From: an archaeon
GTDB taxonomy: Archaea; Thermoproteota; Nitrososphaeria; Nitrososphaerales; Gagatemarchaeaceae
NCBI GenBank assembly: GCA_021848045.1
Contig: JAJZNC010000060.1
Coordinates: 62,001-126,000, forward strand
Length of the DNA: 64,000 nucleotides
Reading direction: 5' to 3'
Each line of letters opens with the position of its first letter. Position 1 is the first letter of the stretch. Shown piece by piece: positions 2,630-19,325 of the stretch. Below the pieces are notes generated by a model. It had not been told where the DNA came from, ran no database searches, and saw nothing but the letters and a program-made list of their open reading frames with translations. Position numbers and translations under genes: made by a program.

Positions 2630-2790
2630 AGCGAGGTGGGGAAGCCAGGAGGCACCAAAAGTGCCTGGTCGTTATCCCGGCGGGCTCATAAGTCCAGAAA
2701 TGGGCTTGGACACCCGCAGAGCGGTGAACGGGCGCAGCCCGTCCGCAAGTTCAAAGGGGGATGACTCCCCTGAAACTCCACCCCTCGCTA
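2630..2790 (+). tRNA. Initiator tRNA-Met(CAU) with four predicted introns (2651-2670, 2691-2711, 2727-2748, 2756-2776)
   Basis: 7-bp acceptor AGCGAGG/CCTCGCT plus A73, D-stem GGGA/TCCC, anticodon stem GCGGG/CCCGC with CUCAUAA loop, T-stem GGTG+G/CCACC; A1:U72 and three G:C anticodon-stem pairs; TATAAG 27 nt upstream. Confidence 0.88.
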
Positions 2791-3528: not shown

Positions 3529-4293
3529 ATGTCTCGGATTGGGGTCATGACCGGCGGGTCTGGTCGGGCGCTCAGGCGCTGCTTCGGGAGCTGGTCGGAG
3601 CGCTACCGCAGGTTCACCAGCAACCTCTCCTCCCCAACCCTGAAGGTGAGAGTCTTGGAGCCTGGGGAGAAGCCCTCAGGAGGCATACCCTGCGTCGTCC
3701 ACTGGGTGAAGAGTGAAGACCTCGTCCGCACAGGCAAGGGGAGCGTCTGCAGCGGAGACGGATGGCCGGTCTCGCTCTGGCGAGCGTTCCTCGAGGAGCT
3801 GCCTGACCTCCCCGGAGACACGGTCGCAGGGAAGCTCTCCAGTTTCCTCGACTCGCAAGAGCGGGAGGACGAGCTGGCCGTTTCCTCGTGGCGCAAGGCG
3901 GTGGAAGCCGGGAGGGTGGTCGAGCCCACCGGGGCTAGTTGGCGCGGCTGGCTCCCAGTCCCAGCGAGGCTGGTCGCGGGTGGCAGGTCGGGGACATGCG
4001 TGTTCTCGTGGTCCCCTGAGTCGAACCTCTACGACAGCCTCTCAGAGGCGCTCAGATCTCCGGAGGCGCGGCTGATGAAGCCCGACCCTGAGAGCCAGGC
4101 GAGGTACTACGCGGAGTGCGCCTTGGCAAAGCTGCACGGCGTGAGCTTCGAGGAGACCGGGGACTCGCTCGAGGACGAGAGCTACTCGCGCCGCCCCGCC
4201 GTGGAGAGGGTGCTTGAGTCACTCTCCAGGTTGGAGGCGGAGAGGGTGGCAGACAGGTCGATGGGCACGCTAGACAGGTTCGGAGGTCAGTAG
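3529..4293 (+). CDS. Hypothetical protein (start uncertain)
   Basis: Long ORF with coding-like composition to 4293; N-terminal part of the longer ORF looks non-coding. Confidence 0.5.
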   Translation: MSRIGVMTGGSGRALRRCFGSWSERYRRFTSNLSSPTLKVRVLEPGEKPSGGIPCVVHWVKSEDLVRTGKGSVCSGDGWPVSLWRAFLEELPDLPGDTVAGKLSSFLDSQEREDELAVSSWRKAVEAGRVVEPTGASWRGWLPVPARLVAGGRSGTCVFSWSPESNLYDSLSEALRSPEARLMKPDPESQARYYAECALAKLHGVSFEETGDSLEDESYSRRPAVERVLESLSRLEAERVADRSMGTLDRFGGQ

Positions 4294-4631
4294 ACGTCGA
4301 CCTCCGATGTGGTTATCAGCCCGTTGGTCCCGACCATCTTCTTGACCTCGGTGAGGACCTTCGAGATCCGGTCCGCATCGCTCACGGTCTCGACTATCGT
4401 AGGGAGGTTCACCGAGAGTCCCAGGACGTCCGCCCTCGCGATCCCCCTCGCGCCGTATCCCCGGGCCGCGTGCGTGACGGTCGCACCCGAGACCCCGGCC
4501 TCCATGAGGAGCGAGATGAGGACGTCGACAAGGGGCTTGCCCTTGAAGGCGTCCTTGGCCTTGACCACCACCGTGAGCTTGACCATCCTCTTGGAGGGAG
4601 GCTTCGCCAAGTCGTCACCAGGGCTATGCAA
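4287..4631 (-). CDS. DUF190 family protein (PII-like fold, CrcB-associated)
   Basis: VKLTVVVKAKDAFKGKPLVDVLISLLMEAGVSGATV...ARGYGARG. Confidence 0.85.
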   Translation of the reverse strand: MHSPGDDLAKPPSKRMVKLTVVVKAKDAFKGKPLVDVLISLLMEAGVSGATVTHAARGYGARGIARADVLGLSVNLPTIVETVSDADRISKVLTEVKKMVGTNGLITTSEVDVY

Positions 4632-5004
4632 GTCCGAACACTACGGTGGCCAGCGCCCTTCCTAAAATTATTGCCCCGAGCGAGCCACCGACGTTCAGCA
4701 CGATGTCCGCCCCGGCCGTGGCAAGTTCCCCGACCCCGATGAGGTTGACGGACTCGAAGGCGAACGAGGACATCGTGGTCATGGAGCCGCAGAAGCCTAT
4801 CCCGATGAATATCGTGTAGCGACCGTCCAAGCCGAGGCCTGAGACGGCCGTCGAGCTCGCCCCCAGGATGAAGCTCCCTGCAATGTTGACCAGTAGGACG
4901 GATATTGGGAGGCTCCCGATGAAGAACCCCTCGCCGGTGATCTGGTACCTGACGTAGGCACCGAGGACCGCCCCAACGGCCAGGTAGACCAGGTCATACT
5001 TCAC
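4624..5004 (-). CDS. crcB: Fluoride exporter CrcB/Fluc
   Basis: GAVLGAYVRYQI, LLVNIAGSFILG, GFCGSMTTMSSF Fluc motifs. Confidence 0.92.
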   Translation of the reverse strand: MKYDLVYLAVGAVLGAYVRYQITGEGFFIGSLPISVLLVNIAGSFILGASSTAVSGLGLDGRYTIFIGIGFCGSMTTMSSFAFESVNLIGVGELATAGADIVLNVGGSLGAIILGRALATVVFGLA

Positions 5005-5035
5005 GCTCTCTCACTCCCGCTCGCTGTTGATTTGT

Positions 5036-5096
5036 CTGGTAGGAGCTATCGGCTCACAAGGGTTTGCGAGCGGTTATGGCGAGCCCCACCGCCGAG
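5036..5096 (-). promoter_or_regulatory. Fluoride (crcB) riboswitch
   Basis: Minus strand CGGCGGUGGGGCUCGCCAUAACCGCUCGCAAACCCUUGUGAGCCGAUAGCUCCUACC matches the fluoride aptamer layout (GGCGnUGnnGnnCGCC ... GCUC/GAGC ... GAUnnCnCCUAC); 32 nt upstream of crcB; TATA-like CTTTAAGC just upstream. Confidence 0.88.
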
Positions 5097-5168
5097 GGTT
5101 TTGGACGCTGTCGAGACTTTAAGCTTTTCGAAGGGCCAGGGGTTCGGGCCTACTGGGACGACCCCATC

Positions 5169-6683
5169 CTAGCCCTTGGCGCCGGGACCCTGTGCCAGGA
5201 ATATCCGGTGGTAGAGGTCGTCCCCGTAGCTGGTCGGCAGCGGCTCTCCCGGCAGCACCCTGAAGGTTCGCTCCCCATTCTCGAGCCTCTGCGCGCGGAG
5301 GAAGGCGGCGTTCGGCGTCCCCTTCTCGTAGAGCAGGTGGGCGAACTCGTACTGGTGGGTTACGAAGAACACCTCGACCCTCCTCTCGAGTAGGGCGGCG
5401 ACTATCTGCCTCGAGATCTCCGAGCCTTCCCTCTCGTTTGTGGAGGCGAAGGACTCGTTGAACAGGACCATGCAGTCAGGGGATAGACTGTCGACGATCT
5501 TGCTCATCCTGCCTAGCTCCTCGTCAAGCTTCCCGCTCTTCATCGAGGAGTCCTCCTCGCGGGTGAAGTGCGTGAAGACTCCTGTGCAGATGTCGGCATG
5601 TAGAGACTCCCCCGGGGCGAAGGCGCCCGCCTGCATCAGGAGCTGTGAGATGCCCACGCTCCTGAGGAAGGTCGACTTGCCACCCCTGTTCGCCCCGGTG
5701 ACCACGACCAGGTCCTTGCCCTCCGCCTCGAGGTCGTTACCCACCACCCTCTCGTCCCGCCTAAGGGCGAGGCAGGGGTCGTAGAGACCCTTGAAGGCGC
5801 GCGACCGCCTGCCCCTCTCCGCGGGGGTCGGGAAGCAGACCGGCTCGCCCCTCGCGGCGAGCTGGTCCCTCAAGTTCATGCAAGCTACGTAGAACGCGAG
5901 CTCGTTCCGGAGAGAGACGAAAAAGCCCAGCAGGTGATCGGAGGACTGGGCGAGGGTGTTGGCCAGCCCGTTTATCCCACGGTCCCTCAGCTCGGCCATC
6001 ATCTCGGGCCCGGTCTGGTCGTTGGTGTTGAGCGTGAAGGTGAACTGGCCCGTCTTCCTCCCGAAGAGCCTCCTCCCCTCCTTCCTGTCCTCGGGCTGCC
6101 TGCACAGGGCGTAGCCCGTGCCCTTGTTCCCCTCTCCCAGCTCGGCGCTGATCAGCGTCCCCTCCCCGAGCTCCAGCTCCTTGAGGTGCCCCTCGATGCT
6201 GGCGAGGTAAGAGTCCGAGATCTCGCCCTGGACCATCTCGAATAGCCCCTTGAAGCCGTCTGACTCGAACCTCCCCGCGTGCTGGTCGACAATCGCCCGT
6301 AGTTCCTTGAGCTTGCTGAAGAGCATCTTCAGGAGCCTGACAGACCGCTGGAACGTCTGGTCGGCAGACTTGTACGCGTCGTTCCAGGCCCAATCTTGCT
6401 TCTCCTTGGCGATGGCGTCCGCTGAGAGCTTGAACAACTCGGCCACGACGTCTGGGTTCTTCAGGCAGTCCTTGAGGACGCCTTGCCGGAACAGGATCGA
6501 GTCGACGTCAAGGAGGCTCGTCAGGAGGACCTTCTTCGCGAGGTCGAGGAGGAACTTGTCCTTCCCCGCCATCGCCTTGAAGAGCGTCTCGAGCTGGAGG
6601 TCCCGTGAGAGGTCGTACTCGTTGGCAGGGAGCTTCCCCTCGAGGTCTAAACCCCGGTCCCTGTGCATGAGGAGGACCTTCAC
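5169..6683 (-). CDS. MutS-family ATPase (paralog B)
   Basis: TGANRGGKSTFLRS Walker A, MVLFNESFASTNEREG; MutS core plus ATPase. Confidence 0.8.
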   Translation of the reverse strand: MKVLLMHRDRGLDLEGKLPANEYDLSRDLQLETLFKAMAGKDKFLLDLAKKVLLTSLLDVDSILFRQGVLKDCLKNPDVVAELFKLSADAIAKEKQDWAWNDAYKSADQTFQRSVRLLKMLFSKLKELRAIVDQHAGRFESDGFKGLFEMVQGEISDSYLASIEGHLKELELGEGTLISAELGEGNKGTGYALCRQPEDRKEGRRLFGRKTGQFTFTLNTNDQTGPEMMAELRDRGINGLANTLAQSSDHLLGFFVSLRNELAFYVACMNLRDQLAARGEPVCFPTPAERGRRSRAFKGLYDPCLALRRDERVVGNDLEAEGKDLVVVTGANRGGKSTFLRSVGISQLLMQAGAFAPGESLHADICTGVFTHFTREEDSSMKSGKLDEELGRMSKIVDSLSPDCMVLFNESFASTNEREGSEISRQIVAALLERRVEVFFVTHQYEFAHLLYEKGTPNAAFLRAQRLENGERTFRVLPGEPLPTSYGDDLYHRIFLAQGPGAKG

Positions 6684-8227
6684 TGCCGGATGCGCTCCTT
6701 TATCCGTTCGTAGGAGAGCTGATGCTTGTCGGCTATCGCCATCGCAAACGCCAGGCCGTCGGCAGGCTTCCTCGTTATCTTGAACGTCCTCAGCTCTGGG
6801 TTATCCGGGAGCACCGTGCTCATGACGCTGACCGCCTTGTCCATGGTCGAGAGCTCGTCGATGAAGGTCACGTAGACGCAGAGAGCGTCGAGCTGGATCA
6901 CCCGCTCGAGGACCTTCCTACCCAGGAAGACCGCGTCGCGGAGGGTGCTCGAGCTGAACAGCTCGTTGATTATCACGACGCTCCTCGGGGTGCACGCGTC
7001 GAGGATGGAGTGCACCCTCATCAGGTCGTCCTCGAGCCTGCTCCTGAGGTCGTCGAAGTTCTCCTCCCTCTCGAAGTGTGTGAATATCCTGTCGAACAGG
7101 AACAGCTTCGCGCTCGTGCCAGGCACGGGGAGGCCCAGGCAGGCCAGGTGGTGTAGCTGTCCGAATGCCCTGGCGAAGGTGCTCTTCCCGCCCTGGTTGG
7201 GGCCGTTAACGACGAAGACCCTCTCGTTGTCCTTCAGGAAGAAGTCGTTCGTGACGAGGGGAGACTTTTCTCGGACGAGCTTGTTCGCAAGGGCGAGGTC
7301 GAAGCCGTTGTGGCTCTCCACCTGCTTGCTGTCGGAGACCACAGGATAACAGAACCTGAGCCCGGTGCCCGTGAACTGCGCGACGAACTCGTGGTATGCG
7401 ATGTAGAACTGCACCTCGCGGTCGAAGTCGGCTACGGTCTGGTCCAGGAACTCCTTGTTCCTGGCGCAGTACTCGTCCAGGCTCTGGAAGACCTCGGGAT
7501 AGAGCTTTGCGACGAACTCCAGGGCGGCTTCCTCCACGTGGTTCACCTCCGGGTAGCCGGTGAACCTGATGCGGTAGTCCTTCGCCGCGCCCTCCCTGAA
7601 CTTCTCGAAGGCTTTCTCCACCTCGACGCTGTAGTCCTCCTCCCCCTCGTACTTGCGCACCGTGAACTGGTTGTTGGTCTTCATGAGGAGGCAGTATCTT
7701 GACGCTGCCAGGTCGGCCCTCATCTTCTCGGTCTCGGCGCGGAGTGCCGCAAACCCGGGAGACTCAAGGTAGCTCAGGAGGAACCCCCGGAAAGACAAGA
7801 AGCCCCGGGACTCTAGGTCGAGCGCCGCGAGGTCAGCCCCGAGGCGCGAGACCGCCTCGCAGTATGCCTCGACGCCGTTCAGGAACCAACCCTGCCTGTT
7901 GTACCTGTTGTGGACGTTCTCCGCGAGCTGCCTGGCCCGACGCATGGAGCGCATCCCCTGCGCGAAGGCTTCGATGGCGTCGCGGAGGGACTGGCTCTCC
8001 AGCTCCCTCATCGCCTGGTGACGGTACTCGATTGCCTCGGAGCTGTTCAGGGTGGCCATGAACAGGGTGCCGAGGCGGTACTCCTGTCTGCCGACCAGTA
8101 TCGAGTCGACTATCTGGTCAAGATGAAGGTCGACGACGAAGTCCTGGACTCCCGTCGAGGGCGGCTCGCTGCCGTCCTCCGCCTTCTCGAAGAGGATGCT
8201 GCGGAACGGCCGGGTGGTGTTGCTCAT
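6680..8227 (-). CDS. MutS-family ATPase (paralog A)
   Basis: VNGPNQGGKSTFARAFGQ Walker A, VVIINELFSSSTLRDAV; overlaps both neighbours. Confidence 0.8.
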   Translation of the reverse strand: MSNTTRPFRSILFEKAEDGSEPPSTGVQDFVVDLHLDQIVDSILVGRQEYRLGTLFMATLNSSEAIEYRHQAMRELESQSLRDAIEAFAQGMRSMRRARQLAENVHNRYNRQGWFLNGVEAYCEAVSRLGADLAALDLESRGFLSFRGFLLSYLESPGFAALRAETEKMRADLAASRYCLLMKTNNQFTVRKYEGEEDYSVEVEKAFEKFREGAAKDYRIRFTGYPEVNHVEEAALEFVAKLYPEVFQSLDEYCARNKEFLDQTVADFDREVQFYIAYHEFVAQFTGTGLRFCYPVVSDSKQVESHNGFDLALANKLVREKSPLVTNDFFLKDNERVFVVNGPNQGGKSTFARAFGQLHHLACLGLPVPGTSAKLFLFDRIFTHFEREENFDDLRSRLEDDLMRVHSILDACTPRSVVIINELFSSSTLRDAVFLGRKVLERVIQLDALCVYVTFIDELSTMDKAVSVMSTVLPDNPELRTFKITRKPADGLAFAMAIADKHQLSYERIKERIRQ

Positions 8228-9543
8228 CGCGCGACCCACCCCTCGACGATCTCTCGGTGACCGGCGAGCTCGCGGCCGTACCTGATGAGCTGCTTGGTGA
8301 GGTGTCTCTGCGCCCGCGGGGACGGCAGGTAGGTCCCCGGATGGATGCGGGAGGGGGGTCCGTGCTCGACGCGGAGGGCGGCGGTCCTGTGGCCGCACGT
8401 CCTGCACTGGTATCCCTTGCCTCTTCCCTCTGACTTCATCCCAGAGCTGCAAAGAGCGCATCTTGGCCTGGCTTTAACTGCTTGGTGGAGCGCGAGCACC
8501 TCGATCTTCTCCACGTTCAGGGCTGCGGAGTTCCTGGGCGTCGCCCTCCTCACCCCGCCTGAGACTCGCACAGAATCACCCGTCCTCAGCAGGCGCGCCG
8601 TGCGCTTGAGGTCGCCCGAGGGTTCGTAGACCATGCACCGCAGGTCGGCTCCGGCGACGCGGAGCGCGAGCTCGAGGTGCCCCCCCTCGCGCGCGTCTAG
8701 CGAGACGACCTCTCCCTCCAGCCAGCCCGCCGAGTAGGCCTTGAGCGGGACCGAGAGCCGTGGTTTGAGGTGGGCGTCGGTGCACTGGTTGGTCGCGTAG
8801 ACCATGTGGCCTAGCGGCACCTCCCCGGTCCTTACCCTGCGGAACGCCTCGAGGACCGCCCCCGGTGAGTCCCCCCTCACGCCGGCGAGGACGGGGTCGG
8901 GCCCTGTGGGAGCGAGGAGGACCCGGCCGGACTCGTGGTCGTAGTTGTTGAACGTGTGCGGGAATGTCTCAGCCTCCATCTCGACTACAGACTCCCGAAG
9001 AACCGACCTGAGAGTACCGCACCTCTCAGGCCTCCTGTACGCTATGAGCTCGTAGGTGTGGTCGTCCGAGTCGCAGGAGAACCCTAGGCTCGCGGCCGCC
9101 CCCACCGCCCCCATCCCGTTCCCGAGGAGCGTGTGCCTAAGCCCCATCCTGACCAGCTCGTGGATGACGCCGCGGTAGCTCACCATGCCGCTCAGGGCCC
9201 GGAGGTACAGCTCCCTGAAGTAGGGGGCGGCGGCCTCTTCTTTCGAGGCCATCACCAGCCCGGGGTTCGCGCCGTTGCCGACGTCGGCCTCCTCGTCGAG
9301 GAGGGCCTCGGCTGTGTCGAAGGCCCTGTCCCGCAGCGACTCCGAGGTGGGCTCGAACTCAACGCAGACCGCCGCGTTGCCCCTCGTCTTGAAGGGCACG
9401 TTTGGGTTGAGCCGCACCAGCCGGGGGTAGGACGGGATCCGGCACCCCATCCTGGCCAGCTCGCAGGTTATGAGGTAGCCCAGGTGGGTCGTGCAGTGGC
9501 CGAACCGGGAGTCGGTGTCGTCCATCCCTAGGAGGTACCGCAA
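8224..9543 (-). CDS. tiaS: tRNA(Ile2) 2-agmatinylcytidine synthetase TiaS
   Basis: MRYLLGMDDTDSRFGHCTTHLGYLI...; C-terminal zinc ribbon CALCSSG..CRTCGHRT. Confidence 0.88.
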   Translation of the reverse strand: MRYLLGMDDTDSRFGHCTTHLGYLITCELARMGCRIPSYPRLVRLNPNVPFKTRGNAAVCVEFEPTSESLRDRAFDTAEALLDEEADVGNGANPGLVMASKEEAAAPYFRELYLRALSGMVSYRGVIHELVRMGLRHTLLGNGMGAVGAAASLGFSCDSDDHTYELIAYRRPERCGTLRSVLRESVVEMEAETFPHTFNNYDHESGRVLLAPTGPDPVLAGVRGDSPGAVLEAFRRVRTGEVPLGHMVYATNQCTDAHLKPRLSVPLKAYSAGWLEGEVVSLDAREGGHLELALRVAGADLRCMVYEPSGDLKRTARLLRTGDSVRVSGGVRRATPRNSAALNVEKIEVLALHQAVKARPRCALCSSGMKSEGRGKGYQCRTCGHRTAALRVEHGPPSRIHPGTYLPSPRAQRHLTKQLIRYGRELAGHREIVEGWVAR

Positions 9544-19033: not shown

Positions 19034-19325
19034 ACGCGAGCCGGTGGGTGGGCCACGGGGATCTCCTGGGGAAGTTCCTCCCTCGATGCAGGATGCACGA
19101 CGCCGAGAGGCGTAACCGGAGACGGTTGGCTACGGAACAGAAACGAGACCCGTCCCGTCAAATGCGATGAAGGAGCGATCCCGAGGTCGATGGGAACGAG
19201 ATGAAACGGCCGACCCGTGCAGAGCAAGGCCGAACGTGGTCTAAGACGCGCCTGCACCAGGCCAAGGTAGGCCGCTGAGCTGAATCCCGCCTAGAACAAA
19301 AGGAGGACTACGGCCGGCACGCGCC
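19034..19325 (+). ncRNA. rnpB: RNase P RNA (archaeal)
   Basis: GGGGAAGUUCCUCC (CR-I), GGAACAGAAACGAGACCCGUC, GAUGAAACGGCC, GCAGAGCAAGGCCGAAC, AGAACAAAAGGAGGACUAC (CR-V); P4 pairs AAG(U)UCCUCC with GGAGGACUA (bulged U); P1 GCG(A)GCCGG/CCGGC(A)CGC; TATA-like GGCTTAA ~27 nt upstream. Confidence 0.87.

What the first reader, a model, noticed from the sequence alone, without database searches (positions are those of the whole stretch)
2727..2776. Nested dependency between T-stem and T-loop introns implies ordered splicing
Introns 3 and 4 are separated by a 7-nt exon (GUUCAAA). The outer helix of intron 4's motif is the T-stem GGUGG/CCACC, which exists only after intron 3 is removed. The central helix of intron 4 is formed by exon T-loop UUCA with intron UGAA. 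This predicts that intron 3 is excised before intron 4.
Basis: inference. Interest (0 to 1): 0.75.

Follow-up and report, generated by a model that had tools for sequence, protein, structure and literature searches.

The report
Four-intron initiator tRNA with nested introns
In a soil archaeon, the only start-codon tRNA gene found is interrupted by four tiny introns, and the last one can form its full cutting signal only after the third is gone; this makes a splicing order likely but does not force it, and the principle was already known from other archaea.

Summary
Window 2630-2789 (+) is an initiator tRNA-Met gene with four introns: D-loop 2650-2671, 37/38 2691-2711, T-stem 52/53 2727-2748 (intron 3), T-loop 59/60 2756-2776 (intron 4). 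Introns 3 and 4 flank the 7-nt exon GUUCAAA. Removing all four gives a 74-nt tRNA identical to the spliced orthologues L108 and L054. Relatives in Gagatemarchaeaceae and other Nitrososphaerota carry every combination of introns 3 and 4.

The dependency is real and one-way. Intron 3's motif is unaffected by intron 4. Intron 4's full motif costs 14.0 kcal/mol while intron 3 is present and 2.8 after its removal. But 'implies ordered splicing' is too strong. Intron 3 itself has only a 2-bp outer helix in all 21 intron-3 genes examined in detail, and the genome encodes two endonuclease paralogues (predicted lenient alpha2beta2 type). Intron 4's relaxed motif, which exists without the T-stem, could therefore be cut first. 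In one relative, intron 3's 3' end replaces the T-stem.

Nested archaeal tRNA introns are already described. The additions here are four introns (papers found say at most three), a mesophilic lineage, and a series of orthologues suited to testing.

The parts
2630..2789 (+). Initiator tRNA-Met(CAU) gene with four introns (160 nt unspliced, 74 nt mature)
   Evidence: Exons identical to L108 and L054 spliced tRNAs; only copy of CGGCGGGCTCATA in the genome assembly
2650..2671 (+). Intron 1, D-loop, 22 nt; H = GCCA/UGGU, inner GGCAC/GUGCC
   Evidence: Register set by identity of mature D-loop to intronless orthologues; similar to D-loop intron of L054 (2000 shuffles)
2691..2711 (+). Intron 2, canonical 37/38, 21 nt; H = CUCA/UUGG (one mismatch), inner GUCC/GGGC
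   Evidence: Same site occupied in many orthologues; helix read from sequence
2727..2748 (+). Intron 3, T-stem 52/53, 22 nt; H3 = G47 C48 G49 G50 with intron CCGC, inner ACGGGC/GCCCGU, bulges UG|A and AA|G, outer helix only A46-U54 and G45.U55
   Evidence: (covariation at position 47)
2749..2755 (+). 7-nt exon GUUCAAA (G53 and T-loop 54-59) between introns 3 and 4
2756..2776 (+). Intron 4, T-loop 59/60, 21 nt; H4 = exon UUCA / intron UGAA, inner GGGGA/UCCCC, bulges AA|G and AC|U, outer helix = T-stem 49-53/61-65
   Evidence: similar to T-loop intron of nearest relative L053
2601..2608 (+). TATA-like element (TATAAGGG) 29 nt upstream of the tRNA, probable promoter
   Evidence: Sequence reading only; not tested

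Best explanation
This is a functional single-copy initiator tRNA-Met gene whose transcript carries four bulge-helix-bulge (BHB) introns. Introns 1, 2 and 3 each have a motif that can form in the unspliced RNA. Intron 3 is cut from a relaxed motif: central helix 47-50 with the intron, a strong 6-bp inner hairpin and almost no outer helix. Its removal and ligation joins G49-G52 to G53, so the T-stem forms and gives intron 4 a complete hBHBh' motif, which is then cut. Shown by computation: exon and intron boundaries, the helices, one-way dependency, and conservation in relatives. Inferred: splicing by the alpha2beta2 endonuclease and an archaeal ligase, and intron 3 before intron 4 as the usual but not obligatory order.
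For: Mature sequence identical to orthologues with other intron sets. H3 covariation, 21 of 21 paired with five pair types. Intron 3 motif cost in the window precursor is 1.66 kcal/mol with intron 4 present and 1.59 without; intron 4 full motif costs 14.0 with intron 3 and 2.8 without; its relaxed motif costs 4.95 with intron 3. In all 9 genes with both introns the intron 4 full motif costs 9.5-16.6 kcal/mol before and 0.6-3.5 after intron 3 removal, and the intron 3 motif is cheaper than the relaxed intron 4 motif in 9 of 9 whole precursors, but 7 of 9 in local folds. Two endonuclease paralogues, one with the HAPYLV histidine and one without.
Against: No RNA data. The relaxed intron 4 motif is available before intron 3 is removed, and intron 3 shows that this enzyme cuts motifs with hardly any outer helix. 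In L029 intron 3's GGGG end can replace the T-stem. In local folds two of nine genes (L025, L029) favour the relaxed intron 4 motif over the intron 3 motif. Secondary-structure energies ignore tertiary folding, protein binding and transcription.
Confidence: 0.68

Rival explanations
1. No fixed order: the lenient alpha2beta2 endonuclease cuts intron 4 from its relaxed motif (central helix, 5' bulge, inner helix) regardless of intron 3, so both intermediates occur.
For: Intron 3 itself has only a 2-bp outer helix in all 21 intron-3 genes analysed; two endonuclease paralogues in the genome; alpha2beta2 enzymes are described as lenient toward hBH and HBh' motifs (PMC4090602).
Against: The relaxed intron 4 motif is 3.3 kcal/mol less favourable than the intron 3 motif in the window precursor, and less favourable in 9 of 9 whole precursors. 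Random cutting of both introns before ligation would release and lose the 7-nt exon (inference).
Confidence: 0.2
2. The order intron 3 then intron 4 exists, but it is set by transcription: intron 3 is complete and cut while the polymerase is still making intron 4 and the acceptor strand, and motif dependency is only incidental.
For: Intron 3 lies upstream and its motif needs nothing downstream of position 2749 except two weak pairs.
Against: tRNA transcripts are short, and in the alga C. merolae the order of removal follows motif stability rather than 5'-to-3' position (PMC3978253).
Confidence: 0.08
3. Intron 4 is normally removed first, in its relaxed form, and intron 3 second.
For: Freeing U54 and U55 from the intron 4 central helix would allow intron 3's two outer pairs A46-U54 and G45.U55.
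Against: Intron 4 removal hardly makes the intron 3 motif cheaper (window 1.66 to 1.59 kcal/mol; at most 0.1 in the nine double genes with introns 1 and 2 kept, at most 0.6 with them removed, L026), while intron 3 removal completes intron 4's motif.
Confidence: 0.03
4. The gene is a decayed copy or an assembly error and is not spliced to a working tRNA.
For: Draft metagenome assembly, 88 percent complete in 61 contigs; ARAGORN finds no tRNA.
Against: Exons are identical over 74 nt to the spliced orthologues L108 and L054, it is the only initiator tRNA found in the assembly, and two relatives (L024, L025) also have four introns at the same sites.
Confidence: 0.01

Closest known systems
Nested multiple-intron archaeal pre-tRNAs (Sugahara et al. 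2007; Tocchini-Valentini et al. 2009, as cited in PMC3978253)
   Same: The last intron's BHB motif forms only after another intron is processed; tRNAscan-SE 2.0 searches iteratively because of such cases (PMC8450103).
   Different: Here four introns instead of the stated maximum of three, in a mesophilic soil Nitrososphaerota family, and the dependent pair flanks a 7-nt exon in the T-arm of the initiator tRNA. The primary papers could not be read here.
Cyanidioschyzon merolae tRNA-Ile(UAU) with D-arm, anticodon and T-arm introns (PMC9602550)
   Same: Several BHB introns in one tRNA; D- and T-arm introns are removed before the anticodon intron by RT-PCR evidence.
   Different: There the motifs fold independently, and the order follows stability or site (PMC3978253).
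Noncanonical tRNA introns of Thaumarchaeota covered by the thaumarchaeal BHB model of tRNAscan-SE 2.0 (PMC8450103)
   Same: Same phylum, same intron class, noncanonical sites.
   Different: That survey reports up to three introns per tRNA gene in 217 archaeal genomes.

Membership tests
Archaeal BHB tRNA introns | Two 3-nt bulges separated by a 4-bp central helix, cut between bulge nucleotides 2 and 3 | tested here: met
   H3 4 bp in 20 of 21 genes; H4 4 bp in all but the GGAA type, which has 3; window has both at 4 bp. Cut sites inferred, not observed
Archaeal BHB tRNA introns | Removal restores a normal tRNA | tested here: met
   74-nt tRNA-Met(CAT), 0 mismatches to the spliced orthologues L108 and L054
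Strict hBHBh' motif, intron 4 | Outer exon helix next to the bulges in the unspliced precursor | tested here: not met
   1 bp in the precursor, 5 bp only after intron 3 removal
Strict hBHBh' motif, intron 3 | Outer exon helix of at least 3 bp | tested here: not met
   2 bp (A46-U54, G45.U55) in all 21 intron-3 genes analysed; relaxed HBh' type
Nested multiple-intron pre-tRNA | One intron's full motif needs prior removal of another | tested here: met
   Full motif cost 14.0 to 2.8 kcal/mol in the window; 9 of 9 double genes show a large drop
Nested multiple-intron pre-tRNA | Ordered excision observed in RNA or in vitro | not testable with these tools
   No RNA data or enzyme assay available
alpha2beta2 tRNA splicing endonuclease | Two diverged paralogues, one catalytic | tested here: met
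   PF01974 and PF02778 matches for two genes; HAPYLV histidine only in the C42/C60 copy, absent in C32. The catalytic gene is split over two contigs. Subunit assembly not tested

The most novel reading that the evidence does not exclude
The one-way dependency acts as a checkpoint: intron 4 cannot be cut efficiently until intron 3 has been cut and its exons ligated, which stops the 7-nt T-loop exon from being cut free and lost. Such coupling would be what makes very short exons in multi-intron tRNAs tolerable, and could go with a weak shortage of genes with both introns in the Gagatemarchaeaceae part of the tree (odds ratio 0.16, P = 0.03, not corrected for kinship).
Probability: 0.2. Interest if true: 0.6.

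Novelty: new member of a known kind. Interest (0 to 1): 0.36.

Why it matters
The principle is known, but this gene is a clean test case. The same tRNA occurs in close relatives with intron 3 alone, intron 4 alone, both or neither, so the effect of nesting on splicing order and rate could be measured with natural controls. The window's nearest relative (98 percent identical in the neighbouring TFE protein) has intron 4 but not intron 3. It also extends multi-intron tRNAs to four introns in a mesophilic acid-soil archaeal family, and shows that automatic annotation can miss the only initiator tRNA of a genome.

Tried and rejected
Metagenome scan: no quota. Primary papers Sugahara 2007 and Tocchini-Valentini 2009: not held, so their content is cited through PMC3978253. 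Search for 'four introns' in archaeal tRNA: only unrelated papers. An earlier register for intron 1 (cut after CCAGGA) was rejected because it gives a longer D-loop than the orthologues; the register used restores an identical D-loop. A further hit of the two-intron pattern (L134, L135, L140) was rejected as the same arrangement: its T-stem CUGGG is intact and its upstream intron lies before the T-stem. Excision of introns 3 and 4 as one 50-nt unit was rejected because it would delete the T-loop exon. A rough scan for two-intron tRNAs elsewhere in the genome gave ambiguous sets and is not relied on.

Full report
What is there. Window 2630-2789 (+) is a tRNA gene that ARAGORN and the Rfam scan both miss in the window. 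Read with four introns removed it gives AGCGAGGTGGGGAAGCCAGGTTATCCCGGCGGGCTCATAACCCGCAGAGCGGTGGTTCAAATCCACCCCTCGCT, 74 nt, which ARAGORN calls tRNA-Met(CAT) and which is identical to the spliced tRNAs of L108 and L054. The A1-U72 acceptor pair fits the archaeal initiator tRNA (general knowledge). The anticodon-arm string CGGCGGGCTCATA occurs once in the 1.6-Mb assembly, so this is the only initiator tRNA seen. The genome is a Nitrososphaerota metagenome assembly; the neighbouring TFE protein places it with Gagatemarchaeaceae, a family of acid soils inside a clade predicted to be mesophilic (PMC10640624).

Coordinates. Intron 1 2650-2671 (D-loop), intron 2 2691-2711 (37/38), intron 3 2727-2748 (52/53), 7-nt exon 2749-2755, intron 4 2756-2776 (59/60). 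The finding's span 2727-2776 is exact.

Natural variation. 49 distinct orthologous gene sequences were recovered, most of them just downstream of the TFE gene. They carry introns at the same four sites in many combinations: introns 3 and 4 both in 9, intron 3 only in 15, intron 4 only in 15, neither in 10. Four introns occur in the window gene and in two other distinct genes (L024 = L074, L025 = L075). A pattern search of 400 genomes of the order found the two-intron T-arm pattern in 11 genomes and its reversed control in none; ten of the 11 have it in the initiator tRNA and one has only a different tRNA that does not share the arrangement. On a TFE tree the state changes often; the nearest relative, 98 percent identical in TFE, has intron 4 without intron 3, and the next has neither. 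Intron 4 of the window and of L053, and intron 1 of the window and of L054, are similar beyond shuffling. So intron 3 was gained in, or lost around, this lineage recently; the data do not say which.

Structure. Intron 3: positions 47-50 (GCGG) pair with intron CCGC, bulges UG|A and AA|G, 6-bp inner helix. Across 21 genes the position-47 pair is always standard with five pair types (G-C, G-U, U-A, U-G, C-G); shuffled partners give a mean of 10.7 and never 21 in 100,000 trials. This is strong support for the helix, though the sequences are related. The outer helix of intron 3 is never more than two pairs, A46-U54 and G45.U55. Intron 4: UUCA with UGAA (UGAG and GGAA in some relatives), inner helix, and the T-stem as outer helix. 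With intron 3 present the outer helix falls from 5 bp to 1 bp in the window and to 1-2 bp in 8 of 9 double genes; in L029 the GGGG end of intron 3 gives 5 bp instead. Since G49 and G50 belong to both the intron 3 central helix and the T-stem, the intron 3 motif and the full intron 4 motif exclude each other.

Energies. ViennaRNA, constrained ensembles at 37 C. Window, all introns kept: intron 3 motif 1.66 kcal/mol, relaxed intron 4 motif 4.95, full intron 4 motif 14.0. Intron 3 removed: full intron 4 motif 2.80. Intron 4 removed: intron 3 motif 1.59. In all nine double genes the full intron 4 motif costs 9.5-16.6 before and 0.6-3.5 after intron 3 removal; single-intron genes set the scale (intron 3 alone median 2.56, intron 4 alone median 2.35). 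The intron 3 motif is cheaper than the relaxed intron 4 motif in 9 of 9 whole precursors and 7 of 9 local folds. The dependency is therefore one-way and favours intron 3 first.

Why the order is not strictly implied. Intron 3 must be cut from a motif with hardly any outer helix, in every gene analysed that has it. The enzyme therefore accepts such motifs, and the unspliced precursor presents intron 4 in just such a form. The genome has two endonuclease paralogues (PF01974 and PF02778), one with the HAPYLV histidine and one without, as in alpha2beta2 enzymes (related solved structures), and these are described as lenient toward hBH and HBh' motifs (PMC4090602). The order is best called preferred. 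I put 0.68 on intron 3 first as the usual route through motif completion, 0.2 on no fixed order.

Known or new. That nested archaeal tRNA introns can form the last motif only after others are processed is stated in PMC3978253 (citing Sugahara 2007 and Tocchini-Valentini 2009), and tRNAscan-SE 2.0 iterates for this reason (PMC8450103). The papers found give three introns as the maximum per archaeal tRNA (PMC8450103; PMC4033280; PMC3218864), so four is beyond what I could find, within a library that lacks many papers. I file it as a new member of a known kind with an unusually high intron count and an unusually good set of natural controls.

Noticed in passing
window 2630-2789; L024 and L025 (locus position about 1462-1652): Four introns in one tRNA gene, in three distinct genes of the family; papers found state a maximum of three for archaea.
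   Followed up: yes
window 5033-5102 (-) and 4624-5004 (-): Fluoride riboswitch (Rfam RF01734, 42 bits) directly upstream of a CrcB fluoride exporter gene (PF02537), followed by a DUF190 gene at 4287-4631 (-).
   Followed up: partly
window 5169-8461 (-): Two adjacent, slightly overlapping genes for MutS domain V proteins for which Pfam finds no other MutS domain (PF00488).
   Followed up: no
window 19036-19322 (+): Archaeal RNase P RNA gene (RF00373, 191 bits).
   Followed up: no
L135 (G017:C1:1299947-1300018), L134, L140: Another tRNA in relatives with an apparent intron before the T-stem and one in the T-loop (GTTCAAA ... GGAAAG); isotype not settled, possibly a further intron in the anticodon arm.
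   Followed up: partly
L021 and other tRNA loci of G000: Several other tRNA genes of this genome look intron-bearing, some with two introns; ARAGORN misses 6 of the 22 that the covariance search finds.
   Followed up: partly
L143 (G000:C42) and L145 (G000:C60): The catalytic endonuclease subunit gene is split across two contig ends that share an overlapping stretch.
   Followed up: partly
L029, L036 intron 3: Intron 3 ends in GGGG here and can itself pair with C61-C65 (5 bp in L029, 2 bp in L036), a natural bypass of the nested dependency.
   Followed up: partly
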